Under the pieces are notes generated by a model. It searched no databases and was not told where the DNA came from. It saw only the letters and a program-made list of their open reading frames with translations. Shown here one piece after another: positions 815-21,169 of a stretch of DNA of 64,000 nucleotides (within the stretch, counting starts at the first letter, position 1; each line of letters opens with the position of its first letter). The stretch lies in the NCBI RefSeq assembly GCF_009749525.1, contig NZ_WOAC01000002.1, positions 124,001 through 188,000 of the forward strand, given 5' to 3'. This DNA is from Mesorhizobium xinjiangense (lineage in GTDB: Bacteria; Pseudomonadota; Alphaproteobacteria; Rhizobiales; Rhizobiaceae). The translations under genes were made by a program, and so were the position numbers.

Positions 815-2056
815 TCATTTGTCAGTTGCAAAGCGCTCGAGCATGCCGACATCGCCGACCTGGCCACCCTTGAGAAGGAGAAGCGTTCCGTCAACGTCAC
901 ATCCAGCCGCATCCCCGCGGCAGACAGCCACGCCAGCGCCCGCGCGTTCGACAAAGGAAAGGCTCCGGAAACCAAGACGTTTGACGACCGCGCTGGATGT
1001 GTCTCCGCCGGCGACTGCGATGGCGGCCACCTGCTGGAGTTGCACGATCGTCGCCGTCAGGGCCGCTAAACGCTCGGAGAGTGCCGCGGACGCCAGGCCG
1101 TAGTCGAGATCGGGCCGGAGATGGATGAGCACGTTTCGACCCGAGGCAAGCAGTTCTGCGCAGGATTTTGCAAAGCGTGATTGGCCGGCTTCGAGATGAT
1201 CGCGATGAAGCGGCAGGCACTTATAGCTTGTTGCCGCTGCGACCTGAGCGGCAGTCGCCGAGGACCGGCTGCCGGCTACCGCCAGACGTGGACCGTCGGC
1301 TCGTTTGGTTGCGCTTTGTAAAGGCGTCGCGTCGGACGGCGGATAGAGTGCTTCGGCAACGCTGCTGGCGCCAATGAGGAGCAGCGGTGCGGCTTCGGTG
1401 TCGATCCGGCGCAGGATTTCACCGATCCGCTCCATATCGGTGAGGTCGAGCCCGTCGATCAATACGCGGCCCGAGAGCCTGATCGTCTCTGCCACCTCGT
1501 TCGATGCAGATTGCAGTTGTGACCGGCTGATGAGATCGATCTTGTCGAGACCCTGCCTGCGCAGATGTATACGCAAGTTCGCTTCGTCCATCGGCGTCAC
1601 CGGGTGCCGGCTCATGATCGGGTGTCGGTCGATCCGATATGTCTTACCATCCGGCGCGCGAGCGAATAGGGTCCCGAACACGCAGTAGCGGCCGAGGCTC
1701 GGCTGGCCGCCAAGGACGATCGTGCGGGAGGGCGCGAATGCGGCTTCAAGTGCCAACACCGCAGCGCCTATGCTGCCGACATGCGGCGCGGAATCGAAGG
1801 TCGAGCAGACCTTGTAGTGAATGTAGCGCGGCGCCAGACCATGCATTGCTTGCGCCAATAAATTGAGCCGCAGCGTTGCTTCTTCGGGCGAGCGGGCCCG
1901 CAAGTCAGTCGCGATACCGACCGCATCGAGGCCTGCAGTCTCGCTCTCCTCGGGCGCGTCGAGAAACAGGCGGGCCCTGGCGCCACGCTCGGCCAACGTG
2001 GCGAGCGTGTCGGAGGCGCCGGTGAAATCGTCACCGATGAAAACGGTGTCGGCCAT
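815..2056 (-). CDS. Four-carbon acid sugar kinase family protein (DUF1537; OiaK/OtnK type)
   Basis: Predicted ATP-dependent kinase of a sugar-acid intermediate, 413 aa, cytoplasmic. The N-terminus begins with the family signature GDDFTGA at residues 8-14 and the C-terminal half holds the nucleotide-binding part with AVAGGDTSSAV and a glycine-rich end (LLLLKGGQVG). The ATG at 2056 lies one base after the stop of the RuBisCO-like gene, so the two are co-translated. A DUF1537 kinase beside a RuBisCO-like protein is the arrangement of the characterised D-apionate route, where OiaK makes 3-oxo-isoapionate 4-phosphate for OiaX. Other DUF1537 members phosphorylate D-erythronate, L-threonate or 3-oxo-tetronates, so the exact substrate is inference. 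An upstream in-frame start at 2143 is unlikely because it lies inside the preceding gene. Confidence 0.88.
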   Translation of the reverse strand: MADTVFIGDDFTGASDTLATLAERGARARLFLDAPEESETAGLDAVGIATDLRARSPEEATLRLNLLAQAMHGLAPRYIHYKVCSTFDSAPHVGSIGAAVLALEAAFAPSRTIVLGGQPSLGRYCVFGTLFARAPDGKTYRIDRHPIMSRHPVTPMDEANLRIHLRRQGLDKIDLISRSQLQSASNEVAETIRLSGRVLIDGLDLTDMERIGEILRRIDTEAAPLLLIGASSVAEALYPPSDATPLQSATKRADGPRLAVAGSRSSATAAQVAAATSYKCLPLHRDHLEAGQSRFAKSCAELLASGRNVLIHLRPDLDYGLASAALSERLAALTATIVQLQQVAAIAVAGGDTSSAVVKRLGFRSLSFVERAGAGVAVCRGDAAGCDVDGTLLLLKGGQVGDVGMLERFATDK

Positions 2057-2057
2057 G

Positions 2058-3332
2058 TCAATGGCCGAAGAAGTCGATCGCGGCCGCCAGTTCCGGCCTG
2101 TTGGCCGCCGCGGTGTCGAGATCTTCGCCGGCCGCGACTGCATCCCAGGCTTGCCGCAGGCTTTTCACGCCCGCCGCCGGTCCGTCCGGATGGGCGAGGA
2201 TGCCGCCGCCCGCCATGAACAGGAAATCGCCGGAACCCGCTGCCTTTGCCGTGACCGGCAAGGTCCCCGCCCACTGTCCGGACGAGAATGCCGGCATCAC
2301 CGCATCCGAAGCATCTGGAGCATCGACGGCCAGCGGTTGAAGGCAGCGGCGTGCCGCCGCCTCGACCTCTTCGGCCCGGTCGGAGAACTTGCCGCCGATG
2401 CCATGGACATGCATGTGATCGATGCCGGCGAGGCGGTAGAGCGCCTGATAGGCGTCGAAACCGATGCCCAGCAGCGGATGGCGGGCGAAGGCGCCGAACC
2501 CGTTGCGGTGGCCATGAACCGCCAGGGGCGTGGCGCGGCGCAGCGATTGCATGGCCGAGAGCCCGCACCAGTTGAGGCTTGCCATCACGCAGGTGCCGCC
2601 TTCCTTTTCGACGAGATCGGCATGATGGCGCATGGCGTCCGTTTCGTCGGTTATGTTGAAAGCCACCATGACGTTTCGGCCGGTGCGGTCGCGAAAGGCC
2701 CGCACCCTCGCCATCACTGCCGGCACGCGTTCCGCGAGCCGCGCATGGTCGGGGTCGGCACAGATCTCGTCGTCCTTGATGAAGTCGACGCCGGCCTCGC
2801 ATAGCAATTCGGCCAGATCGGCTATCTCGCGGGGGCGCATGCCGACATTGGGTTTGATGATCGTGCCGAAGAGCGGCCGCTCATATGCGCCGACGCGTTT
2901 GCGCGTGCCTTCGATGCCGACAAGAGGCCTTTCGAAGCGATCGCGGTAAGCCTGCGGAAGCGCCACCTTGATGAGACGCAGCCCTGTCACCTCGCCAAGA
3001 TCGTAGAGATTTCCGGCAACGGTGGCGGCAAGTGTCGGAAGGTTGGTGCCGATGTTGGCGACCGGGTAGGCAATGCGGACAATTGCCCGCCGCCAGGGGC
3101 CCGGTAATTGCTTGCGTTCGAGATATGCGCTCGACAGGCTTGGCGATGAGGCGCCTTCAATTTCCTCGACGGACAGGACTTTCGCCGCAGCGCGTTCCCG
3201 CAACGCATCCGTTTCGCCGGCAACGCGCACGAAAGTGCCGCTCGACTGTTCGCCGGCCATGATCGCTGCCACCCTTTCCGGGTCCAGCGGGGTCTCGACG
3301 AGATAGCTCGCTTCGATCGTGTCAGGGCGCAT
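2058..3332 (-). CDS. RuBisCO-like protein (form IV, OiaX-type candidate)
   Basis: A 424-aa RuBisCO large-subunit homologue. It keeps the active-site lysine in GTIIKPNVG (K160) and the carbamylation/metal triad in DFIKDDE (K186, D188, E189), the HGHRNGF and HVHGIGGKF histidine/lysine segments, SSGQWAG and the phosphate-binding MAGGGI motif. The second lysine of the KPK motif is replaced by Asn, and no small-subunit gene is present, so carbon fixation is unlikely. With a DUF1537 kinase directly downstream, the best parallel is OiaX, which cleaves 3-oxo-isoapionate 4-phosphate to 3-phosphoglycerate and glycolate; this is inference from family and context. It sits nine bases after the VOC gene in a TRAP-transporter operon. 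An upstream frame extension to 3392 overlaps the VOC gene and is rejected. Confidence 0.9.
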   Translation of the reverse strand: MRPDTIEASYLVETPLDPERVAAIMAGEQSSGTFVRVAGETDALRERAAAKVLSVEEIEGASSPSLSSAYLERKQLPGPWRRAIVRIAYPVANIGTNLPTLAATVAGNLYDLGEVTGLRLIKVALPQAYRDRFERPLVGIEGTRKRVGAYERPLFGTIIKPNVGMRPREIADLAELLCEAGVDFIKDDEICADPDHARLAERVPAVMARVRAFRDRTGRNVMVAFNITDETDAMRHHADLVEKEGGTCVMASLNWCGLSAMQSLRRATPLAVHGHRNGFGAFARHPLLGIGFDAYQALYRLAGIDHMHVHGIGGKFSDRAEEVEAAARRCLQPLAVDAPDASDAVMPAFSSGQWAGTLPVTAKAAGSGDFLFMAGGGILAHPDGPAAGVKSLRQAWDAVAAGEDLDTAAANRPELAAAIDFFGH

Positions 3333-3340
3333 GGCTTGCC

Positions 3341-3880
3341 TCAAATAGCCGATAGATCGGGGAAGGGGCGTATTGGGTCGCTGCCGTCCCAATCGTCCGA
3401 TGCCGCCCGTATCATGTCGAACATGCGGCCTTTCGGGCCCACGACCTCGGAGAGCTCGATCACGGTCCCCGGGTGCGCTTCGCGATCGAAATAGACGAAA
3501 CGGCCGTTCTCGCCGACCTTGCCGCTCATTTTCGGGCGAAAACCGTCGGCCTCCATGCGGGCGAGATCACGGTCATAATCCTGGGTCCAATAGGCGACAT
3601 GCTGCAGGCCACGATGGCCGGCCTCGCGAAAGTCGCGGTACATCGACGGCGCATCGTTGCGGCACTGGATCAGTTCGACCTGGATGAAACCGCTGTTGGC
3701 GAGCGCGACCGAATTGTGCGGTTCGTACGCCTTGCCGTCGTAGCAATAGTCCTCAATCGGCACTTTCGGGTTGTAGAACCACGGGCCGACGCCCATCATC
3801 TTGTGCCAATGCGTCATGGCCGATTCGATGTCGTCGACGACATAACCGAGTTGGCGGATAGCGCCCAGAAACCTGCTCAT
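3341..3880 (-). CDS. VOC-superfamily (glyoxalase/dioxygenase fold) protein
   Basis: A 179-aa protein with two glyoxalase-type half-domains: an N-terminal strand-helix segment (LGYVVDD, residues 11-17) and the C-terminal segment from GLQHVAYW to TVIELSEVV. The metal ligands expected of the family are visible as His94 (QHVAYW) and Glu142 (VIELSE). The closest style is methylmalonyl-CoA epimerase or lactoylglutathione lyase-like proteins. It lies between the TRAP permease and the RuBisCO-like gene, eight bases from each, so it should act on the imported sugar acid or its keto derivative, for example as an isomerase or epimerase. That role is inference. No VOC protein is part of the known OiaK/OiaX route, which makes it the unexplained step of this operon. 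Confidence 0.85.
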   Translation of the reverse strand: MSRFLGAIRQLGYVVDDIESAMTHWHKMMGVGPWFYNPKVPIEDYCYDGKAYEPHNSVALANSGFIQVELIQCRNDAPSMYRDFREAGHRGLQHVAYWTQDYDRDLARMEADGFRPKMSGKVGENGRFVYFDREAHPGTVIELSEVVGPKGRMFDMIRAASDDWDGSDPIRPFPDLSAI

Positions 3881-10809: not shown

Positions 10810-11121
10810 TCAACCACGGCGTTTGAAGGTGTTCAAATTGAGGCCGATGTTGCGGTCGGCACGCACCCATCTTTCTACATGTGCTTCTATGGGACCAAGG
10901 CTGCAGGATATTTCAAATGCATCGACCAGCGCTTCAGGACCTTCTGCAACCACCGTAACGGCGTCGGCCCCCCGCACCTCGACCCAGCCGCTCAGACAAA
11001 GCCGCTGCGCTCTCGCCACGGCGAAGGCAACAAAGGCCTCGCCCAGCTTGCCTTCGAACCGCAACTCGATTGCGCATTTGTGCGCTCCGCCTTTGCCCAG
11101 ATCGCCGGTCAGATAGTCCAC
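10810..11121 (-). CDS. Acylphosphatase-like small protein lacking the usual catalytic residues
   Basis: A 103-aa protein that follows the acylphosphatase pattern: strand, helix ending AQRLCLSGWVEV, the VTVVAEGPEALVDAF segment and CSLGPIEAHVERWV. The catalytic loop G-x-V-Q-G-V-x-F-R is replaced by KLGEAFVAFA, and the Asn after GWV is replaced by Glu, so hydrolysis of acyl phosphates is doubtful. The start is GTG 11121 with GGGAGG nine bases upstream. It is the last gene of the minus-strand oxygenase/transport operon, 55 bases after the binding-protein gene. Its role there is unknown; a ligand-binding or regulatory function is possible. Confidence 0.72.
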   Translation of the reverse strand: MDYLTGDLGKGGAHKCAIELRFEGKLGEAFVAFAVARAQRLCLSGWVEVRGADAVTVVAEGPEALVDAFEISCSLGPIEAHVERWVRADRNIGLNLNTFKRRG

Positions 11122-11176: not shown

Positions 11177-12256
11177 CTAATTCGGCAACGAGCCGCTCAC
11201 GCCCTCGACCAGCCAGTTCATGCCGAAGATCTCCTGATCGGGCAGGGTGGTGCCGGCCTCGGCCCTGACATTGCCGTCCTGATCCTTGAGTGGGCCGGCG
11301 AAGACATGCGTCTTTCCGCTGGCAAGATCAGCTTCGGCCTGCTTGATCGTGCCAAGCTGTTCCTCCGTCAGATCGTCGTTCCAGGCCGCTACCTTCACGG
11401 CACCGGAGGCCAGACCGCCGCGGAAGTCGGCGCCCTTGAAATCGCCGTCGAGCGCGGCCTGGAAGCTCTCGATGAAATAGTCGTTCCAGTCGTTTATCAC
11501 CGATGCCAGAACGCTGTTGGGTCCATAGGCGCTCATGTCGGACGAGGTATTGACCACATAGACGCCTTCGGCCTCGGCCACGTTGACGACCGAGGGCGTA
11601 TCCTGATGTAGCGAGAAGAGCACGTCGGCCCCTTGCGAGATCAGGGCGCGGGCGGCTTCCTGCGCCTTTGGTGGGTCGAACCAGGAGTTCAGCCACACGA
11701 TCTTGATCTTGGCATCGGGATCCACCTTGTGAACTGCGAGCGTGATGGCGTTCACCGCCGCCACGACTTCCGGAATGGCAAAGGCGGCGACGATGCCGAT
11801 CGTGTCCGATTCGGTCACCATGCCGGCGGCGAGTCCGCCGAGATAGAAACCTTCATAGTTACGGGCAGTGAAGGTGCCGAAATTGTCGGTTTGTTTGAAG
11901 CCGCTGGCGTGGATGAACGCGATGTCCGGATGCTGGCGCGCCAGGCGCAAGCCATCATTCATGTAGCCGAAGGAGCCCAGCATCACGAATTTGGCGCCAT
12001 CTGTGACCATCTGGTTCATGATGCGTGCGGCGTCGGGACCTTCGGGAATATTCTCCACGACGATCGACTCCACCGCATCGCCGAACTTTTCCTCGATCGC
12101 CTCGCGGCCGAGGTCGAGTTGCTTCGCCCAGCCGACATCGGCCACCGGAGAGGGGTAGAGAAAGCTAATTTTCACCGGTTCCGCCTGAGTGGCCGTAGCG
12201 ACAAACGCGGCTGCGGCGCCTGCGAGCCAGGCAACTATTCTCTTTCTTAATCTCAT
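11177..12256 (-). CDS. BMP-family ABC transporter substrate-binding protein
   Basis: A 359-aa periplasmic binding protein of the Bmp/PnrA/Med family, which bind purine nucleosides or related bases. A signal peptide is clear (RKRIVAWLAGAAAAFVATATQA, about 24 residues, cleaved before EPVKISF). The core has the family features GWAKQLDLGRE, MVTDGAKFVMLGSFGY, GGLAAGMVTESDTIG and VLFSLHQDTPSVV. It is followed upstream by two BMP-type permeases and a double ATPase. With the N-demethylase-like enzymes of the same operon it most likely delivers a methylated purine or similar heterocycle; that is inference. ATG 12256 is chosen because it starts the signal peptide and has GAGGAGAACG upstream. Confidence 0.93.
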   Translation of the reverse strand: MRLRKRIVAWLAGAAAAFVATATQAEPVKISFLYPSPVADVGWAKQLDLGREAIEEKFGDAVESIVVENIPEGPDAARIMNQMVTDGAKFVMLGSFGYMNDGLRLARQHPDIAFIHASGFKQTDNFGTFTARNYEGFYLGGLAAGMVTESDTIGIVAAFAIPEVVAAVNAITLAVHKVDPDAKIKIVWLNSWFDPPKAQEAARALISQGADVLFSLHQDTPSVVNVAEAEGVYVVNTSSDMSAYGPNSVLASVINDWNDYFIESFQAALDGDFKGADFRGGLASGAVKVAAWNDDLTEEQLGTIKQAEADLASGKTHVFAGPLKDQDGNVRAEAGTTLPDQEIFGMNWLVEGVSGSLPN

Positions 12257-12287
12257 TTCGTTCTCCTCTGATGGTCTCAAGGACGCT

Positions 12288-13208
12288 TTATTGCGCCTCT
12301 CTGTAAACACGGCCCAAGGAAACGGGAGCATTGAGCCGGATACGGCGGCCATCCATCGACAAAAGGGCGATGGCGACGATGGTGGCGACGTAAGGGATGC
12401 TGGTTAGCAGTTGCGAGGGCACGCCGATGCCGGTGCTCTGCACCAGAAGCTCGGCGATGGAGGCGATGCCGAAGAGATAGGCGCCAATCATCACGCGACC
12501 GACGCGCCAGGTGCCGAAGACGACCAGTGCCACGACAATCCAGCCACGTCCGGCGATCATGCCGTCCGACCACAGCGTGGTCGAGGCCACCGAGATGAAG
12601 GCGCCGGCCACCCCGGCAAGGAATCCGCCGGCCAGCACCGCCAGGAGACGGACGAGCATGACGTTGTGTCCGATTGCATGGGAGGCCTCCGGCGATTCCC
12701 CGACGGCGCGGATGATCAAGCCAAGCTTCGAATATCTGAACAGCCACCACAGGCCCAGGGCGGCGAGCGGGGCGAGATAGACCAGCACCACGTGATTGAA
12801 GAGGCCCGGACCGATGACCGGGATATCCGAAAGGAACGGGATCGGCATCCTGGGCATCGGCGGCACGGTCTTGCTCTCGTAGGGCTTGCCGATCAGTGCG
12901 GCGAGCCCCACGCCGAGAATGCCGACGGCAAGCCCAGTCGCCACCTGGTTGCCGAGCGCGAGCAACACAACGGCGCCGAAAAGGGCGGCAAGAAGGGTCG
13001 AGACAAGCCCGCCGGCAAGGAAGGCCAGCCAGTAGCTCCCTGTTTCCATAACGACGATGAAGCCGATGGCCGCGCCAAGTGCCATCATGCCCTCGACGCT
13101 GAGATTGAGGATACCTGACTTTTCGGCGATGAGCTCGCCCAGAGCGGCGATTAGCAGCGGCGTGGCTGCGAGCATGGTACCGGCGAGGACGAAGGTGATC
13201 GTCTGCAT
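12288..13208 (-). CDS. ABC transporter permease (NupQ/YufQ type, BMP-linked)
   Basis: A 306-aa inner-membrane permease with eight to ten predicted helices and the BPD_transp_2 signature region (LNLSVEGMMALGAAIGF near 35-51, and AVGESPEASHAIGHNV near 190-205). It pairs with the second permease at 13208-14302, whose stop overlaps this start by one base, to form the channel of a nucleoside/purine-type importer. The gene order ATPase, permease, permease, binding protein on the minus strand is a standard BMP-type layout. Confidence 0.94.
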   Translation of the reverse strand: MQTITFVLAGTMLAATPLLIAALGELIAEKSGILNLSVEGMMALGAAIGFIVVMETGSYWLAFLAGGLVSTLLAALFGAVVLLALGNQVATGLAVGILGVGLAALIGKPYESKTVPPMPRMPIPFLSDIPVIGPGLFNHVVLVYLAPLAALGLWWLFRYSKLGLIIRAVGESPEASHAIGHNVMLVRLLAVLAGGFLAGVAGAFISVASTTLWSDGMIAGRGWIVVALVVFGTWRVGRVMIGAYLFGIASIAELLVQSTGIGVPSQLLTSIPYVATIVAIALLSMDGRRIRLNAPVSLGRVYREAQ

Positions 13209-14302
13209 CAGATCTGTGCCTCGCTTGCCGGGGCGGGGGGTCTCAGGCGTACGCGATAGTCGACGAAGAGCCGTGCGGCGATATAAGTGACGAGAAGGAT
13301 TCCCTGCAGCACGGTGTTGAGTGCATAGGGCACGCCGGCGGCGGTCTGTGCAATATCACCGCCGACCAGGATAACGGCCATGAAGAAGGCGGCGAACAGA
13401 ATTCCAACCGGGTTGAGCCCGCCGAGAAACGCCACGATAATGGCGGCAAAGCCGTATCCCGGCGAAATCACGCGCTGGAGCTGGCCAAGCGGTCCCGCGA
13501 CCTCGAAAACGCCGGCGAGGCCGGCTGCGGCCCCACCGATCAGGAGGCTCAGCCACACCGCCTGCTTCTCGCTGAAGCCCGCATAACGCGCCGCATTCGG
13601 CGCCGTTCCACCCACTTCGAGCTTGTAGCCGATCATGCTCCGGCGCACGAGCAACCATGCCAGCGCCGTGGCGATCAGCGCGATGAAAAACGAGACGTTG
13701 ACGCGGGTGCCGCCGACAAGGATCGGCAGCATTGCGGCGTCTGGAAAGAGGGCGGACTGCGGGAAATTGAATCCGAAGGGATCGCGCAGCGGGCCGGAGA
13801 CAAGGTAGTAGAGAAGCTGCAGCGCAATGCTGTTCAGCATCAGTGTGACCAGTATCTCGTTGGCGTTGAAGCGGGCGCGCAGGAAGGCCGCCATCGCGGC
13901 CCAGGCCATGCCGAAACTCGCCCCGACGAGCACCATGGCCGGCAGCATCAGCGCCGATTGGCTGTCGTTGAAATAGATCGGTAACAGGCTGCCGCCGATG
14001 GCGCCGAGAATGAGCTGCCCCTCCGCACCGATATTCCAGACCTTGGCGCGAAAGCCGATCGCCAGGCCCTGGGCGATAAGGAGCAGCGGTGACATCTTCA
14101 ATAGCACTTCGCCGATGTTGTAGCGGCCCGACAGCGGCGCGGCGTAGAGATAGTAGAGCGCACGCAGCGGCGGTACGCCCATGATGCTCATGAGGATAAG
14201 CGCGCCGACAATGGTGACGGCAATGGCGGTGCAGGGCGCGAGCAGCGCCGTGTAGCGGGTACGATGGACTCTGGTGTCGACGATCCAGGGGAGGCGGGTC
14301 AT
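13208..14302 (-). CDS. ABC transporter permease (NupP/YufP type, BMP-linked)
   Basis: A 364-aa integral membrane protein. It has a first helix at about 20-45 and the conserved WNIGAEGQLILGAIGG segment near 105-120, FNANEILVTLMLNSIA near 155-170, and the GYKLEVGGTAPNAARYAG coupling loop. ATG 14302 overlaps the ATPase stop as ATGA, so the two are translationally coupled. It is the longer partner of the two permeases of the BMP-type importer. Confidence 0.94.
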   Translation of the reverse strand: MTRLPWIVDTRVHRTRYTALLAPCTAIAVTIVGALILMSIMGVPPLRALYYLYAAPLSGRYNIGEVLLKMSPLLLIAQGLAIGFRAKVWNIGAEGQLILGAIGGSLLPIYFNDSQSALMLPAMVLVGASFGMAWAAMAAFLRARFNANEILVTLMLNSIALQLLYYLVSGPLRDPFGFNFPQSALFPDAAMLPILVGGTRVNVSFFIALIATALAWLLVRRSMIGYKLEVGGTAPNAARYAGFSEKQAVWLSLLIGGAAAGLAGVFEVAGPLGQLQRVISPGYGFAAIIVAFLGGLNPVGILFAAFFMAVILVGGDIAQTAAGVPYALNTVLQGILLVTYIAARLFVDYRVRLRPPAPASEAQI

Positions 14303-15879
14303 GCCAGCACGGCCTTCCGGGAAGATTCTGCGCTCAGGAAATCGCCCGTCATGTAGCTGCCGACCAGCCCGGTGCTGGCCTCGCTCCGCGCGATTGGCGG
14401 CGACAGCCGGCCGCGAAAGAGCACATGGACGCGGTCGGCCATTTCCAGCAGTTCCTCGAGCTCGTCGCTGATCACCAGAATGGCGGTGCCCTGATCGCGC
14501 AAGTCGATGAGCTGCTGGCGGATGGAAGCCGCGGCACCGACATCGACGCCCCAGGTCGGCTGCGAGGCGATCATGATTTTCGGCTTGAGCCGGATTTCGC
14601 GCCCAATGATGAACTTCTGCAGATTGCCGCCGGAAAGGCTTTGCGCCTCGGCATCCGATCCGCCGCAGCGCACGTCCATCTCCTTGATGCATTTTTCCGC
14701 GAATGCGCGCGCCGAATCGAAGGCGATCATGCCGCGCCGCACCATGCCAAGCCGGTGTGCCGTCAGAAGAACATTCTTCGTCAGGCTCATTTCAGGAACA
14801 GCGCCACGCCCATTGCGCTCCTCGGGTACGAAGGCCAAGCCGAGCTTGCGGCGTGCGCCGGCATCCACATCGCCGCACGGATTGCCGTCTATGACGAGGG
14901 CTGCGCGCTCAAGGGCAGGCAGCACCGTTTCGCCGGAAAGAATTGCTGCAAGCTCCCTCTGTCCGTTGCCCGAAACGCCGGCAATGCCGACGATCTCGCC
15001 TGGATAGAGCGGGAGGTCGATCTCTTTCAGTCTGGTGCCGAATGGATCTTCCGGCTGATGGTTCAGATTGCGAAGTTCCATCGCTGGCCGGTCTCCCGGA
15101 TGCGGCGCGGTGCGATGCGAGCGCGGCAGATCATGGCCGATCATGAGACGGGCCAGCGTCTCGTTGGATTCGTTTGAGGGATCGACCTTGGCGACCACCC
15201 GCCCAGCCCGCATCACGGTGGCCGTGTGGCAGAGAGCGCGGATCTCCTCCAGCTTGTGGCTGATGAAGAGGATGGCGCAGCCTTCCGCCGCAAGCTTTCG
15301 CAACGTCGCGAAGAGTGGCGGGATACCGTTCGGCGGCAAGACCGAGGTGGGCTCGTCCATGATGATCAGAGCCGGCTCCTGCAATAGGCAGCGGATGATC
15401 TCGGCCCGCTGGCGCTGGCCGACCGAAAGGGAGTGGACGAGCGAGCGCGGGTCGACCGGCAGGCCGAAGCGCTCGCCAATCTCGACGATGCGCGGAGCAA
15501 GCCTGGCCGCAGTGTCACGCGTGGCGAGCGAGATGTTTTCGCCGACCGTGAGCGTTTCCAGCAGCGAGAAATGCTGGAACACCATACCGATCCCGAGGCT
15601 GCGCGCATGGGCGGGATTGCGGATCGAGACGTCCTCGCCGCGCCAGCGGATCTTGCCGGCATCCGGCGTCAGCACCCCGTAGATCATCTTCATCAGCGTG
15701 CTTTTGCCGGCGCCGTTCTCGCCGAGGATGGCGTGGATTTCGCCCGGATGGACGGTGAGCGAGACGTCGGCATTGGCGACGACCGTGGGGAACGATTTCG
15801 TCACGCCGGCCAGTTCGAGCAGCGGCTCACGGAGTTCGGGAGCCTTGATCCGTTCACGCGTGGCCACATCCGCCTTCAT
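14299..15879 (-). CDS. Sugar/nucleoside-type double ABC ATPase (NupO type)
   Basis: A 526-aa cytoplasmic ATPase with two ABC domains. The first has Walker A GENGAGKST (about 54-62), the signature LSVGQRQRAEI and Walker B ALIIMDEPTSVL. The second has a degenerate Walker A (GVSGNGQRE) and the signature LSGGNLQKFI, followed by MIASQPTWGVD. Asymmetric double ATPases of this kind serve sugar and BMP-type nucleoside importers. It begins 71 bases after the reductase gene. Confidence 0.94.
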   Translation of the reverse strand: MKADVATRERIKAPELREPLLELAGVTKSFPTVVANADVSLTVHPGEIHAILGENGAGKSTLMKMIYGVLTPDAGKIRWRGEDVSIRNPAHARSLGIGMVFQHFSLLETLTVGENISLATRDTAARLAPRIVEIGERFGLPVDPRSLVHSLSVGQRQRAEIIRCLLQEPALIIMDEPTSVLPPNGIPPLFATLRKLAAEGCAILFISHKLEEIRALCHTATVMRAGRVVAKVDPSNESNETLARLMIGHDLPRSHRTAPHPGDRPAMELRNLNHQPEDPFGTRLKEIDLPLYPGEIVGIAGVSGNGQRELAAILSGETVLPALERAALVIDGNPCGDVDAGARRKLGLAFVPEERNGRGAVPEMSLTKNVLLTAHRLGMVRRGMIAFDSARAFAEKCIKEMDVRCGGSDAEAQSLSGGNLQKFIIGREIRLKPKIMIASQPTWGVDVGAAASIRQQLIDLRDQGTAILVISDELEELLEMADRVHVLFRGRLSPPIARSEASTGLVGSYMTGDFLSAESSRKAVLA

Positions 15880-15950: not shown

Positions 15951-16925
15951 TCACAAATCCAGCACCAGAAATTTCGATTTTGCCCGTGACACGCATGGCG
16001 TCATAAGCCGTCCGCTCTCATGTTCCTCGTCTGTCAGATAGAGGTCGTTGTGTTCGGGCTCGCCCTCGATCACTTGGGTGAGACATGTGCCGCACACGCC
16101 CTGTTCGCAACTCGTCTTGATCTCCACTCCGGCTTCGCGCAGCACTTCTATGATCGGCTTGTCGGAGGGGACGAGAAGCTCGATCCCGCGCTTAGCAAGC
16201 CGCACGACGAACTCGCCCTTGCCAGGCTCAAGTTTCGGCGGCTCGGCCGAGAAATGCTCAAGTACGATCGATCCCGCTGGCCAGCCGGCTTCCTCGGCAG
16301 AACCGCGCACCACGTCCATGAACGGATTCGGCCCACACAGATAGATCGCGTCGTCTTCGGCCGGACTGCTCAGGATTTCATCGAGCGCGTCGTTCAGGAG
16401 CGGCGGCACGAGGCCGAAATGGTAGAAGACGCGCTCCCCCCACGCGCTTTTGGTGATCAGATCCTGGAAGGCAAGCTCCTGGTTGGAGCGGGCGAAATAG
16501 TGAAGCTGGAAATCCGCATCGCGCGCGGCCAGCGCCTGCGCCATGCTGAGGAGCGGCGTAACCCCGATGCCGCCGGCCAGCAGCAGGCTGCGGCCCCTGT
16601 TCTGCCTCAGCGCGAAATTGTGCTTGGGCCGACCTATGCGCACCGTGGCACCTTCCGTAAGCCGGCTATGCATGGCATTGGAGCCGCCACGTCCGTTTTC
16701 CTCGCGTTTCACGCCGAGAACGTAGCAGGAGCAGTCGGCCGGGTCGTTGACCAGGGAATATTGCCGCTGCAGGCCAGGCATGGGATAGACGTCGATATGG
16801 GCGCCCGCCTCGAAGGGCGGCAGTGCACCGCCATTCACCGGTGCAAGCACGAAGCTGCGGATCTCCGAGGTTTCGGCTCGGACCCGCTTCACGATGACCT
16901 CCAGTTCGCCCGCCTCCCCGGCCAT
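15951..16925 (-). CDS. PDR/VanB-family oxidoreductase (FNR plus plant-type ferredoxin), NdmD C-terminal-like
   Basis: A 324-aa electron-transfer reductase. FMN-binding/FNR motifs are RQYSLVNDP (about 54-62) and the NAD-binding GGIGVTPLLSM (about 117-127) with YLCGPNPFM. The C-terminal [2Fe-2S] ferredoxin has CEQGVCGTC and a distant CVS cysteine. Such proteins pass electrons from NADH to Rieske oxygenases, as in vanillate demethylase VanB. In the caffeine N-demethylase reductase NdmD a Rieske domain precedes this module; here the Rieske part is a separate gene at 18459-19139. It starts with a one-base overlap (TGATG) on the GST-like gene. Confidence 0.93.
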   Translation of the reverse strand: MAGEAGELEVIVKRVRAETSEIRSFVLAPVNGGALPPFEAGAHIDVYPMPGLQRQYSLVNDPADCSCYVLGVKREENGRGGSNAMHSRLTEGATVRIGRPKHNFALRQNRGRSLLLAGGIGVTPLLSMAQALAARDADFQLHYFARSNQELAFQDLITKSAWGERVFYHFGLVPPLLNDALDEILSSPAEDDAIYLCGPNPFMDVVRGSAEEAGWPAGSIVLEHFSAEPPKLEPGKGEFVVRLAKRGIELLVPSDKPIIEVLREAGVEIKTSCEQGVCGTCLTQVIEGEPEHNDLYLTDEEHESGRLMTPCVSRAKSKFLVLDL

Positions 16926-17554
16926 CAGGTAAACTCCGCAATTCCGGACATGGGCTGGAAGCGAGGCAGCCGGCGAAAGGCGCGCATCCAGTTGCGCAGG
17001 GCCGGATAGTCCTCGTGGCCGATGCCGCCGTCGCCGGCAAGCGCCGTATAGGGAAAGCAGGCAATGTCAGCGACGGTAGGTTCTTCACCAACGATCCACT
17101 GGCCGCCCTCTATCTCCCGCTCCGTCAGATGGTCGTCGAGGATTCGGAAGGCCGCATGGGCGTTCCGGCGCGCAGCCTCGATATCGAGCCTGTAACCCAT
17201 CACGTCGTGAAGCCGCGCTGCGGATGCTGCCATCAGCTCGCCGCCGGCGAACATCAGCCACATCATCACCTGGCCGAAGCGCGCAGGATCGTGCGGTAGC
17301 CACCGGCCGCTTGCATCGTATTTGTTGGCGATGTGGCACAGGATCGCCTGAGCGTCTCGCAGCCTTGTGCCATCATCGTCGAGGACGGGAATCTGGCCGA
17401 GCGGATTGATTTCGAGGAAGTCGAGGCTCTTGTGCTGGCGGCCGGGGTAGAAGTCGATCTTCTCGACCTCGTAATCGAGTTCGAGGAAATCGAGCAGCAG
17501 GCGCACCTTATAGCAGCTTCCCGAAAGCCCATAGTCATGAAGCTTGATTGCCAT
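16925..17554 (-). CDS. Glutathione S-transferase-like protein (NdmE-like by context)
   Basis: A 209-aa GST-fold protein with an N-terminal thioredoxin-like domain (LHDYGLSGSCYKVRLLL at 5-21, NPLGQIPVLDDDG near 51-63) and an all-helical C-terminal domain containing IVGEEPTVADIACFPY (about 163-178). In the caffeine system of Pseudomonas putida CBB5, NdmE is a GST homologue needed for a stable complex of NdmC with NdmD. This gene stands between the Rieske-less alpha subunit (six bases upstream) and the reductase, so a structural role in such a complex is a reasonable inference. A catalytic glutathione-dependent step cannot be excluded. Confidence 0.92.
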   Translation of the reverse strand: MAIKLHDYGLSGSCYKVRLLLDFLELDYEVEKIDFYPGRQHKSLDFLEINPLGQIPVLDDDGTRLRDAQAILCHIANKYDASGRWLPHDPARFGQVMMWLMFAGGELMAASAARLHDVMGYRLDIEAARRNAHAAFRILDDHLTEREIEGGQWIVGEEPTVADIACFPYTALAGDGGIGHEDYPALRNWMRAFRRLPRFQPMSGIAEFT

Positions 17555-17560
17555 GGTCCC

Positions 17561-18436
17561 TCAGGCCGCCTGTTTCTCGTAGATGCCGAATTGCAGATTC
17601 ATCGCCTTCAGCCATCGCCGGAACGCAATGGAGCTGGCATCGGCCCTGGTCGGCAGTTCGATCGTCGGGTCAAGTGGCAAAAGGGTGGGGCGCTGGTTCT
17701 CCAGAATGATCCGATCCTGCAGGAAGATGCCCTGCTGAAAATCGATGATGCCCTCCGGCGTGCTGATCTCGTCGACCAGCGCCATCGGCATGTAGGCCAG
17801 GCATTCGGTCTCGGCCATCGGCTGCACGAAGAGGCAGATGGCGTCGTTGCGTGCCGGATCACCGAACACGTTCTTGTAAAGCATGACACTGAAGGGCGAC
17901 ATGACGCGGTACACATAGTCCGTCATCTGTCCGCCGGCCGAAGCCGTGGACGCGGCCGGCTGATAGAACTTGCAATCGAGCGCCCAGATCTCGTCGACAT
18001 CCTTGCGGTGCTCGGTCTTGTAGGCCAGCACCTCCGTCTGATCCGGCGCGCCCAACACATTGGTGTGCACGAAGGAGAAATGCGCCATGTCGAGAAAATT
18101 CTCAATGATGCGGTAGGGGCTGGTGCGCACGCCGACGCTGCCGCAACCGATGATGCGGCGATCATCCTCGTCGAATTCAGCGATGACCGGTAGCGGCCGT
18201 GTCGGGTTGCCGAGCGTGGTGAAGATGCAGGTGTAGCGCACCTGCACAGGAAGTGTGCGCCCGGTGGCGCCGTTTTCCTCAATGACGGCCACCTCGTATT
18301 CCTCCGCGCCCTTGCGCGAGACACAGATTTCCTGTCCGAAGATCACCGTGTCGTAGCTTTGGCCCATCGGCACCTGGCCGTGCCAGCCGCAGGCGACCCA
18401 TTCGTTGAGCACGACCTGGTCCGTCGTTACCGCCAT
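17561..18436 (-). CDS. Rieske-less oxygenase alpha subunit (NdmC-like mononuclear-iron catalytic domain)
   Basis: A 291-aa aromatic-ring-hydroxylating/N-demethylase catalytic subunit. The mononuclear iron site is intact: ENFLDMAHFSFVH (about residues 106-118) gives D-x2-H-x4-H, and the C-terminal QDRIILENQ segment (about 236-244) is the usual third-ligand region. The N-terminus lacks any C-x-H/C-x2-H Rieske motif; it begins with WVACGWHGQV, so the domain is truncated or rebuilt. A Rieske-less alpha subunit is known in NdmC, which takes electrons from an extra Rieske domain on NdmD. Here a separate Rieske protein lies 22 bases upstream. The substrate is inferred from context to be an N-methylated purine or similar base. 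ATG 18436 is chosen (GAAGGAGGC upstream); the longer frame overlaps the Rieske gene. Confidence 0.9.
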   Translation of the reverse strand: MAVTTDQVVLNEWVACGWHGQVPMGQSYDTVIFGQEICVSRKGAEEYEVAVIEENGATGRTLPVQVRYTCIFTTLGNPTRPLPVIAEFDEDDRRIIGCGSVGVRTSPYRIIENFLDMAHFSFVHTNVLGAPDQTEVLAYKTEHRKDVDEIWALDCKFYQPAASTASAGGQMTDYVYRVMSPFSVMLYKNVFGDPARNDAICLFVQPMAETECLAYMPMALVDEISTPEGIIDFQQGIFLQDRIILENQRPTLLPLDPTIELPTRADASSIAFRRWLKAMNLQFGIYEKQAA

Positions 18437-18458
18437 ATCAGCCTCCTTCTTCAGGTCG

Positions 18459-19139
18459 CTATTGCGCTTCCAGGGCGCAGCGCAGGCGTTGCATCTTTCG
18501 TGCCAGTTCCAGGCGCTGCCCGGATGCCCGGGCATCCTCGCCTCTGGCAACCACATGCAGCCCGGCCTTGTCCGCCCCTACGGCTTGGATGGCGATCAGC
18601 AAGGTCAGGCCGCTGCCGGTCTCGATCGTCGCGATTCCGTCGCCGCCATTGCCTGCTTTGGCGTCGGGAACGCCGCAGTCGGCGCCTCGCAACCGGTCAG
18701 CGGTGGTTTCGGCCGGGCAGTTGACATAGAGGCTGCGCAGGGGGTGCCATCCCTCTTCCGGGCCGAGATCGGGTAGAGGAGAGGAGGGCTCGTCGGCAAG
18801 ATTCGTCCACAAGATGCCGTAGCGCGTCGTCGCCGGGTAGACCTTGGCGCAAATCGTCTTGGGCGGGGTCAATTCCGGGTGCGCCGGGATCGAGACGCAC
18901 TGGCCGCCGCTTTCATAACCCCAGCCGTGATAGATGCAGCGCAAGGTGTCGCCGCGTACGAAGCCGAAACTCAAGCGCATGCCACGGTGCGGGCATCGGT
19001 CGTGCCAGATATTCGGTTGCCCGTTCTCACCACGCCAGATGGCGAGCGGATGGCCGTCGACAATTGCCGGGTTGGATGAGCCGGGCTCGACCTGATGCTC
19101 AAGGCCGACGGCAGTCCACCGATCGCGGAATTCTCCCAA
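18459..19139 (-). CDS. Stand-alone Rieske [2Fe-2S] protein (NdmD N-terminal-like)
   Basis: A 226-aa protein with one Rieske domain: CPHRGMRL and CIYHGW form a complete C-x-H-x16-C-x2-H site, preceded by the strand LAIWRGENGQPNIWHDR. The C-terminal 80 residues carry no iron ligands that I can see. It has no mononuclear-iron domain, so it must act as an electron carrier. It is the first gene of the minus-strand operon, followed by the alpha subunit that lacks this domain. TTG 19139 with GAAGGG nine bases upstream is the most likely start; GTG 19229 has no ribosome site. Together with the reductase at 15951-16925 it equals the domain set of NdmD, about 550 residues in total. Confidence 0.88.
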   Translation of the reverse strand: MGEFRDRWTAVGLEHQVEPGSSNPAIVDGHPLAIWRGENGQPNIWHDRCPHRGMRLSFGFVRGDTLRCIYHGWGYESGGQCVSIPAHPELTPPKTICAKVYPATTRYGILWTNLADEPSSPLPDLGPEEGWHPLRSLYVNCPAETTADRLRGADCGVPDAKAGNGGDGIATIETGSGLTLLIAIQAVGADKAGLHVVARGEDARASGQRLELARKMQRLRCALEAQ

Positions 19140-19281: not shown

Positions 19282-20247
19282 ATGCAGATCGACGACGTTC
19301 TTGTTTTCCTTCAAATCGCCTCGACGGGCTCCCTGTCGGCGGCTGCCCGCGCCGCCTACAAGCCGAAGGCGACCATCAGCCACCAGCTCCGGAGGCTCGA
19401 GGAGGAGTTGGGCACGGAGTTGTTCACGCGCTCGGCCAACAAGCTCGTGCTCAACGATGCCGGCCTGAGCTTTCTCGATCACGCCAAGAACATCCGCCGC
19501 GCGTGCGAGCGCGGAATCGACGCCGCCCGGCGCAGTCGCAACATCACCTTCGGCACGCTGCGGGTGGCATCGTCTGGGGAATTTTCGTCGAACCTCGTCG
19601 GCCCGCTTGTCCTTCACTTCGCGCGGCATCATCCGCAATTGCGGCTGGAGGTCATGGTGCTGCGTGGCGACGCCTTGTTGCGTTCGCGCGACAGTCTCGA
19701 CTGCATTCTCTATCTCGGCGAACCGCCGATGCCCCAAGTGGCAGAATTGACGGCAAGGCTGCTCGGCCGATTTTCCTTCGGCCTTTATGCAAGCCCCAGC
19801 TATCTGGCCAGAAACGGCGTGCCGCAGTCGCCGTCAGAACTGAGGACGCATGAGCTGATCGGGTTCCACAACGGCGAAAGCACCACTTTGTGGGAATTGA
19901 AGGACGGGGAGCGGGAATTCAGTCTTCACCCCAGCACGAAATTTCTCACCAACGATTATTGGGTGCTCAAACTCGCCGCCATTCACGATCACGGCATCGC
20001 GTTCATGCCGACATTTTTTGCCAGTCTCGAAGTCGCGAACAGCCTGTTGACACCCGTCCTGCCGGAATGGCGCTCGCCAGAGGTACCGATGTATGCGCTG
20101 TTTGCCAGCCATCGCATGGCAAACCCGAATTTGCGGACATTGATTGACTCCGTCTCTCAAAATTTTCAGGAAATATTCGACTACGACTACTACGCTTGCA
20201 GAAACGACGCGCTGACCAACAGCGACAATCGTTTGGAACGCGTATGA
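19282..20247 (+). CDS. LysR-family transcriptional regulator
   Basis: A 321-aa LysR-type regulator: N-terminal winged helix-turn-helix (FLQIASTGSLSAAARAAY near 9-26, ATISHQLRRLEEELGTELF near 30-48), a linker helix, then a periplasmic-binding-like effector domain from about residue 90. It is divergent from the Rieske/N-demethylase-like and BMP transport operon with about 140 bases between the starts, the typical position for an activator of that operon. The effector is probably the substrate of the pathway, which is inference. Confidence 0.94.
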   Translation: MQIDDVLVFLQIASTGSLSAAARAAYKPKATISHQLRRLEEELGTELFTRSANKLVLNDAGLSFLDHAKNIRRACERGIDAARRSRNITFGTLRVASSGEFSSNLVGPLVLHFARHHPQLRLEVMVLRGDALLRSRDSLDCILYLGEPPMPQVAELTARLLGRFSFGLYASPSYLARNGVPQSPSELRTHELIGFHNGESTTLWELKDGEREFSLHPSTKFLTNDYWVLKLAAIHDHGIAFMPTFFASLEVANSLLTPVLPEWRSPEVPMYALFASHRMANPNLRTLIDSVSQNFQEIFDYDYYACRNDALTNSDNRLERV

Positions 20248-20698: not shown

Positions 20699-21169
20699 AT
20701 GTCAAGGCAGACCATCATCCCAACCGAGCTCGAAGCCGTCTACGCGAACTGGCATTTCGCCCCAGCCGTGATCTCAAACGGGATGATCTACTGTTCGGGC
20801 ATCATTGGCACGAGCGCGGACGGGCAGGCAGGAGACGATGCCAGCGCGTTCGACGGAGTCCGGTCAACACTGCAGGATAGTCGAGCCTCCTTGAGCGATC
20901 TCAAGGCCGTTGATGACCCCGAACAGCAGTTTAGCACCGCTTTCGAGGTGCTCGCGGCAATCTTGGCCGAGGCAGGAGCAGGACTTGGCCATGTCGTCGA
21001 GCTTGTGACCTATCACGTCGAAATTCGACGCTACATGGATACCTTCGTGAAGATAAAAGATCGCTACATAGGCGAACCCTATCCAGCCTGGACGGCCGTC
21101 GGGGTGAGCGAGTTGATCGTTCCAGGCGGCCTCGTGGAGTTACGCGCGGTGGCGGCAAAGGACAATTGA
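20699..21169 (+). CDS. RidA/YjgF/YER057c-family protein
   Basis: A 156-aa Rid-family protein: YCSGIIGTSADG near 31-42, the helix DPEQQFSTAFEVLAAILAEAGAG near 72-94, and PYPAWTAVGVSELIVPGGLVELRAVA at the end. Family members hydrolyse reactive enamine/imine intermediates; the catalytic Arg of classical RidA is replaced by Trp in PAWTAVGV, so this is probably a diverged subgroup with unknown substrate. It has a good ribosome site and stands alone, between the two halves of a duplicated intergenic module (R1 before it, R2 after it). Confidence 0.9.
   Translation: MSRQTIIPTELEAVYANWHFAPAVISNGMIYCSGIIGTSADGQAGDDASAFDGVRSTLQDSRASLSDLKAVDDPEQQFSTAFEVLAAILAEAGAGLGHVVELVTYHVEIRRYMDTFVKIKDRYIGEPYPAWTAVGVSELIVPGGLVELRAVAAKDN

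What the first reader, a model, noticed from the sequence alone, without database searches (positions are those of the whole stretch)
15951..19139. Split NdmCDE-like N-demethylase: Rieske protein, Rieske-less alpha subunit, GST-like protein and reductase
Seen: a Rieske-only protein (226 aa, CPH/CIYH), a catalytic subunit with an intact D-x2-H-x4-H site but no Rieske motif, a GST-fold protein and a FNR-ferredoxin reductase, in one tight operon with a one-base overlap in one place. Known: in Pseudomonas putida CBB5, NdmC lacks a Rieske cluster, takes electrons from the extra Rieske domain of NdmD, and needs the GST-like NdmE. Inference: here NdmD is split in two genes, making a four-protein version of the same machine. 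The BMP/purine-type transporter in the same operon supports a methylated purine or related base as substrate.
Basis: partly seen in the sequence, partly recalled or inferred. Interest (0 to 1): 0.85.

Follow-up and report, generated by a model that had tools for sequence, protein, structure and literature searches.

The report
Oxygenase shared between two broken twins
This bacterium makes what looks like a purine-attacking oxygenase in two separate proteins, each resembling a whole oxygenase with one of its two halves ruined, so that only the pair together could work; it is a widespread, separate-gene relative of the last enzyme of bacterial caffeine breakdown.

The parts
18459..19139 (-). Rieske protein (226 aa, TTG start), one half of the oxygenase pair: intact [2Fe-2S] Rieske domain plus a shrunken catalytic-type domain without iron ligands
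18462..18749 (-). vestigial catalytic (SRPBCC-like) domain of the Rieske protein, residues about 131-226
   Evidence: predicted strand-helix-four strands-helix; structural alignment with whole oxygenases; not detected by profile comparison
17561..18436 (-). catalytic (alpha) subunit, 291 aa, intact mononuclear iron site, Rieske cluster loops missing
16925..17554 (-). GST-fold protein, NdmE homologue
   Evidence: 45-57% identical to NdmE homologues
15951..16925 (-). reductase (FNR + plant-type [2Fe-2S]), matches the C-terminal half of NdmD
   Evidence: 36-43% to the reductase part of three NdmD homologues
14299..15879 (-). ABC transporter ATPase
13208..14302 (-). ABC permease 1 (the mechanical ORF runs to 14692; a start near 14302 is inferred)
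   Evidence: BPD_transp_2 within the ORF
12288..13208 (-). ABC permease 2
11177..12352 (-). BMP/PnrA-type substrate-binding protein (mechanical ORF; the true start is probably further in)
   Evidence: PF02608
10810..11121 (-). acylphosphatase-fold protein (103 aa) without the catalytic Arg and Asn; hallmark of the separate-gene form
   Evidence: PF00708; alignment to solved acylphosphatases; two copies found in the genome, one at each split locus; 24 of 26 split, 0 of 15 fused, 0 of 11 undivided loci
19282..20247 (+). divergent LysR-type regulator, likely regulator of the operon (inferred from position)
   Evidence: a LysR gene is also divergent in Paracoccus alcaliphilus

Best explanation
An NdmCDE-type purine oxygenase in separate genes. 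An undivided Rieske oxygenase of a purine operon was duplicated; one copy kept the mononuclear-iron catalytic site and lost the loops that hold the Rieske cluster (alpha), the other kept the Rieske cluster and let its catalytic domain shrink and lose its iron ligands (the Rieske protein). NADH electrons pass through the reductase to the Rieske protein, and from its cluster across the subunit boundary to the iron of alpha, where O2 attacks a purine taken up by the BMP-type ABC transporter. The GST-fold protein, and perhaps the dead acylphosphatase-fold protein, is structural. The likeliest reaction is oxidative removal of a methyl group from an N-methylated purine base, releasing formaldehyde. 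Shown: gene content, homology, lost and kept ligands, clade, purine neighbourhoods, predicted folds. Inferred: duplication, assembly, electron path, reaction, substrate.
For: Homology of all four to NdmC/NdmD/NdmE parts. Predicted folds: each half covers a whole oxygenase; the alpha profile matches SxtDIOX 3-52 (weakly, 10.5 bits) and 103-333, skipping the cluster-binding stretch. Reciprocal ligand loss in 65 of 65 and 66 of 66; undivided kin 11 of 11 with both motifs. One Rieske-less clade, 100/99, with the undivided L190-L200 as nearest kin; Rieske domains of split and fused forms on one side of a branch, 96/82. Rieske protein and GST within the fetched flanks in 78 of 80 loci each. Purine markers in 70 of 80 and in 20 of 26 split, 10 of 15 fused, 11 of 11 undivided loci; guanine and 8-oxoguanine deaminases above NCBIfam cut-offs in loci of alpha subunits. 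Literature passages: NdmCDE a 3:3:3 complex of 360 kDa acting on 7-methylxanthine, and cluster-to-iron transfer between neighbouring subunits in NdmA/NdmB (PMC10380055).
Against: Sequence profiles do not detect the vestigial catalytic domain (hhalign probability 0.2%, E 0.32); it rests on one predicted model. The Rieske tree has only 113 columns, and the 96/82 branch appeared after up to five long-branch or unrelated rows were left out; a quick tree that kept them did not show it. No assembly could be modelled. Substrate and reaction are untested; HpxD-type ring hydroxylation is possible, and 8-oxoguanine deaminase genes lie in some of these loci. No deaminase or xanthine dehydrogenase was recognised in the window operon itself.
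Confidence: 0.7

Rival explanations
1. One reading: a plain fission of NdmD into a bare Rieske ferredoxin-like protein and a reductase; the Rieske protein is just a mobile electron carrier for a Rieske-less N-demethylase.
For: The two proteins together cover NdmD. In the catalytic tree the fused forms are spread at the base with weak support, which would allow a later fission.
Against: The Rieske protein is twice the size of a Rieske ferredoxin and its model superposes over 222 of 226 residues on whole oxygenases; the 66 aligned homologues are 190-257 aa long. Fission alone does not explain why both products have both folds.
Confidence: 0.12
2. Same machine, different chemistry: hydroxylation of the purine ring, like HpxDE, a molybdenum-free xanthine hydroxylase; for example guanine to 8-oxoguanine, followed by 8-oxoguanine deaminase to urate.
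For: HpxD is a homologue (about 30%) and HpxE a reductase homologue (38%). An 8-oxoguanine deaminase above NCBIfam's cut-off lies in the homologous operon of Paracoccus alcaliphilus and directly upstream of one C44 alpha subunit of this genome.
Against: HpxD keeps its own Rieske domain and lies outside the Rieske-less clade, which holds the NdmC homologues. 21 of 80 loci also carry molybdenum-type xanthine dehydrogenase genes, which would make such an enzyme partly redundant there.
Confidence: 0.2
3. The window copy has moved to a non-purine N-heterocycle, the purine setting being a legacy of the family.
For: Of the five loci of the window clade only Paracoccus shows a deaminase near the set; the three clade rows held in the alignment share changes that most others lack, such as G to P at 107 and A to F at 88 (51 of 60 others each). 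NCBIfam's nearest models for the permeases and binding protein are 'putative B6' ones, all below cut-off.
Against: The Paracoccus alcaliphilus operon of the same layout ends with an 8-oxoguanine deaminase; the same type of transporter sits beside deaminases in the wider family.
Confidence: 0.12

Closest known systems
NdmCDE, N7-demethylase of Pseudomonas putida CBB5
   Same: Rieske-less catalytic subunit with intact iron site, Rieske domain in another protein, GST-like partner, FNR-ferredoxin reductase, purine setting; one clade
   Different: Here Rieske protein and reductase are separate genes (fused in NdmD); an acylphosphatase-fold protein is present; ABC/BMP uptake; 7-methylxanthine activity untested. 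The CBB5 NdmC sequence was not held; P. putida Tik1, Klebsiella and Sinorhizobium homologues stood in
SxtT and GxtA (SxtDIOX), Rieske oxygenases of saxitoxin biosynthesis
   Same: Nearest solved structures to both halves, by sequence profile and by predicted fold
   Different: Undivided, both metal sites in one chain; other substrates
HpxDE, molybdenum-independent xanthine hydroxylase
   Same: Purine-acting Rieske oxygenase with a PDR/VanB-type reductase (38% identity)
   Different: Undivided oxygenase outside the Rieske-less clade; ring hydroxylation, not demethylation (function as annotated)
NdmA / NdmB, methylxanthine N1- and N3-demethylases
   Same: N-demethylation of purines by a Rieske oxygenase; NdmA/NdmB listed as an alpha3-alpha'3 heterohexamer (passages of PMC12445004 and PMC10380055)
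   Different: Each has its own Rieske cluster; only distantly related to the window alpha (E 1.8e-13 for NdmB, 3.4e-4 for NdmA)

Membership tests
NdmCDE N-demethylase | Catalytic subunit without Rieske ligands but with an intact 2-His-1-Asp site, in one clade with NdmC | tested here: met
   (with NdmC homologues, not the CBB5 protein)
NdmCDE N-demethylase | Rieske domain fused to the FNR-ferredoxin reductase in one protein (NdmD) | tested here: not met
   two separate genes in the window; in the even sample 26 loci split, 15 fused, 1 without a partner in reach, of 42
NdmCDE N-demethylase | NdmE-type GST-fold partner | tested here: met
   45-57% identity to NdmE homologues
NdmCDE N-demethylase | 7-methylxanthine to xanthine activity; 3:3:3 complex | not testable with these tools
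   needs protein work
HpxDE xanthine hydroxylase | Undivided oxygenase with its own Rieske domain, in the HpxD clade | tested here: not met
   Rieske motif in 0 of 65 alpha subunits, window included; HpxD lies in the outgroup
Three-component Rieske oxygenase with a Rieske ferredoxin | Single-domain Rieske ferredoxin of about 105-115 aa feeding an oxygenase that has its own Rieske cluster | tested here: not met
   226 aa with a second predicted domain; oxygenase lacks the Rieske motif
Acylphosphatase (for the 103-aa neighbour) | Catalytic Arg and Asn (which residues they are is recalled) | tested here: not met
   Val at both places in the window; Arg in 5 of 73 and Asn in 3 of 73 aligned sequences

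The most novel reading that the evidence does not exclude
A duplicated Rieske oxygenase divided its two metal sites between two whole-length sister chains that assemble together, so that each working oxygenase is built from two half-dead subunits. In the separate-gene form a catalytically dead acylphosphatase joins as an obligate further part that does the work of the covalent NdmD fusion (holding or docking the Rieske chain). The machine is a widespread alphaproteobacterial salvage system for N-methylated nucleobases from nucleic acids, with one Rieske-GST pair serving several catalytic subunits of different specificity; caffeine demethylation in Pseudomonas is a specialised offshoot.
Probability: 0.3. 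Interest if true: 0.85.

Novelty: new variant of a known kind. Interest (0 to 1): 0.7.

Why it matters
In Rieske oxygenases the electron normally jumps from the cluster of one subunit to the iron of its neighbour. A natural pair in which each chain has only one working site and a ruined copy of the other makes that jump directly testable: each metal site can be changed without touching the other chain. It would recast NdmD, whose 'extra Rieske domain' would be a decayed oxygenase subunit fused to a reductase. It points to an uncharacterised purine enzyme in about one sixth of sampled genomes of this order (35 of 199 at E up to 1e-40, 4 of which have only undivided relatives), and to an accessory protein that may matter for making such enzymes soluble.

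Tried and rejected
Hidden domain by sequence: profile-profile comparison of the C-terminal part of the Rieske protein with 11 undivided oxygenases gave no significant match (probability 0.2%, E 0.32); I rely on the structural match. A profile of that part does hit the fused NdmD of 5 loci (19-31 bits; L167, L168, L169, L177, L185) and not the others listed.

Direction of change (fusion or fission): not resolved. The catalytic tree puts the fused forms in several weakly supported branches near the base (82/85, 82/57, 83/95); the Rieske tree makes them one clade (100/97). In the quick catalytic tree L188 was labelled split, later relabelled fused; its fused frame is short (437 aa) and its state is the least sure of the 15.

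Rows dropped: for the careful Rieske tree, up to five rows (an unrelated oxygenase of this genome, L048, three long-branch Komagataeibacter-type rows), and split rows thinned at random to 27; for the careful catalytic tree, four rows of unknown state, eight near-duplicate or long-branch rows, and split rows thinned to 25. The quick Rieske tree with those rows did not show split plus fused on one side of a branch. Loci of the even sample are not all independent: L179 and L189 overlap, L149 and L150 come from one genome, and some (L183, for one) are the same contigs as loci of the best 80. States were set by hand.

Motif counter-examples: H-x4-H occurs in the C-terminal part of 2 of 66 Rieske proteins, and a C-x1-2-H in the first 90 residues of 4 of 65 alpha subunits.

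Riboswitch: Rfam at gathering threshold on window 1-30000 found only a tRNA. C36 GST and reductase-like genes of this genome: another kind of protein pair.

Is the reductase merely elsewhere? 4 of 23 genomes with split loci (23 of the 25 in the sample were given) have a homologue at E up to 1e-60; all 15 fused genomes have one, in 14 of them at the NdmD locus. Weaker reductases exist, so the donor in most split systems is unknown.

Print: searches listed no paper that by title or abstract start describes a split form or a vestigial domain, but Summers et al. 2013, the original NdmCDE paper, is not held, so an earlier mention cannot be excluded.
Full report
OBSERVATION. The minus strand holds, 5' to 3': Rieske protein 18459-19139, catalytic subunit 17561-18436, GST-fold protein 16925-17554, reductase 15951-16925, then ABC ATPase, two permeases, BMP binding protein and a 103-aa acylphosphatase-like protein at 10810-11121. 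Within the four-gene core two gaps are 22 and 6 bp, and the GST and reductase genes share one base (TGATG at 16925). A LysR gene is divergent at 19282-20247. The window lies on contig C12 of a 5.26-Mb genome. A genome of its family, G506, has a contig of the same length as that of L042, Mesorhizobium sp. YM1C-6-2, so this is probably a Rhizobiaceae-type bacterium (inference).

HOMOLOGY TO NDMCDE. Against P. putida Tik1, K. pneumoniae and S. meliloti clusters that have a fused NdmD, the window alpha is 42-44% identical to the NdmC homologues (39% to a second S. meliloti copy), the Rieske protein aligns with Tik1 NdmD residues 29-220 (36% over 198 columns), the reductase with the C-terminal half of the three NdmDs (36-43%), and the GST protein is 45-57% identical to the NdmE homologues. 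The Tik1 NdmD ferredoxin domain matches the solved NdmD domain 6icm_D at E 4.5e-37. [quoted passage not shown]

EVOLUTION. These are the closest relatives of the window alpha, hence biased, and some flanks are cut by contig ends. An even sample gave matches at E up to 1e-40 in 35 of 199 genomes of the order and 22 of 398 of the phylum. Of 42 strong loci from that sample (the window's own genome left out), 26 are split, 15 fused and 1 had no partner in reach; 11 weaker matches are undivided oxygenases. Catalytic tree (66 rows): the Rieske-less subunits are one clade, 100/99, and the undivided L190-L200 are their nearest kin in a larger group (100/97); the window, L040, L041, L042 and Paracoccus alcaliphilus are one clade, 100/100, all five with an adjacent reductase. 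Rieske tree (67 rows): split plus fused on one side of a branch, 96/82, from 113 columns after rows were left out. The 11 undivided relatives score 162-192 bits with the catalytic model, other undivided oxygenases at most 115; with the Rieske model they score 93-126 against at most 94. The order of fusion and split is open.

PURINE SETTING. Among the 80 loci: BMP protein 63, adenine deaminase 39, 8-oxoguanine-deaminase-like 39, guanine deaminase 28, xanthine dehydrogenase 21; any deaminase, BMP or XDH 70 (matches to single-sequence models, so the kinds of deaminase are approximate). Markers also in 20 of 26 split, 10 of 15 fused and 11 of 11 undivided loci of the even sample. This genome has a second region on C44 with two more alpha subunits (50% and 45%), one Rieske protein (39%) and one GST protein (45%) among adenine deaminase-type, guanine deaminase and 8-oxoguanine deaminase genes; the last two are above NCBIfam's cut-offs, adenine deaminase is not. 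So the genome has three alpha subunits for two Rieske-GST pairs. The next reductase homologues in the genome (42% and 38%) lie close to other Rieske oxygenase-like frames, so the window reductase may serve all three (inference). Komagataeibacter nataicola from a kombucha culture carries two sets and one reductase on a plasmid.

A FURTHER COMPONENT. The acylphosphatase-like gene occurs in 24 of 26 split, 0 of 15 fused and 0 of 11 undivided loci, and in 71 of the 80 best loci (a first pass with a single-sequence model gave 15 of 26, 0, 0, and 60 of 80). No hit was seen at E up to 1 in the fused or undivided loci. Of 81 loci with both genes it lies on the same strand as the Rieske gene in 77, with a median gap of 1 bp between stop-to-stop frames. 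This genome has two copies at E up to 0.01, one at each split locus. The places of the catalytic Arg and Asn of acylphosphatases (residues recalled; places from the alignments) hold Arg in 5 and Asn in 3 of 73 sequences. A structural role is the simplest reading: it could replace the covalent tie that NdmD has. Limit: the profile was built from split loci, so a very divergent homologue elsewhere could be missed.

MECHANISM. Shown: gene content, homology, reciprocal ligand loss, predicted folds, association. From the literature: electrons pass between neighbouring subunits in NdmA/NdmB (12.1 angstrom), and NdmCDE is a 3:3:3 complex of 360 kDa in which NdmC expressed alone is insoluble (passages of PMC10380055). 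Inferred: reductase to Rieske protein to alpha iron; His71 of the Rieske protein and Asp116 of alpha, both invariant in the alignments, form the bridge; purine N-demethylation. Ring hydroxylation, as by HpxD, is the main rival.

VERDICT. A real, widespread separate-gene variant of NdmCDE. What is new here, as far as the papers held allow, is the whole-length decayed partner, the undivided relatives in a like purine setting, and the acylphosphatase-like hallmark. The original NdmCDE paper was not held.

Noticed in passing
window 10810-11121 and G000:C44:65178-65390: Acylphosphatase-fold gene without catalytic Arg/Asn, tied to the separate-gene form of the oxygenase (24 of 26 split loci; none of 15 fused and 11 undivided ones). 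Its role is unknown.
   Followed up: partly
23 genomes with split loci: Only 4 of 23 hold a homologue of the window reductase at E up to 1e-60, so the electron donor of most split systems is not identified.
   Followed up: partly
L190-L200: Undivided Rieske oxygenases beside BMP-type transporter genes (11 of 11), adenosine-deaminase-like (7 of 11) and guanine deaminase genes (8 of 11): a separate uncharacterised purine oxygenase group.
   Followed up: partly
L017 (Komagataeibacter nataicola, kombucha), L100, L103: Compact clusters with an undivided oxygenase, two Rieske-less alpha subunits, two Rieske proteins, two GSTs and one reductase: candidate methylxanthine degradation sets outside Pseudomonas.
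   Followed up: no
L021 (P. putida 1290 plasmid): The NdmD region is annotated as three separate genes where the Tik1 plasmid (L020) has one, which suggests that this copy is broken or misread.
   Followed up: no
window 815-3392 and G000:C44:83839-86441: By eye, from the translations only: a four-carbon acid-sugar kinase-like protein and a RuBisCO-like protein lie next to each other in the window, and a similar pair lies near the C44 purine region.
   Followed up: no
window 20699-21169: RidA-type gene downstream of the divergent LysR gene; whether it belongs to the pathway was not tested.
   Followed up: no
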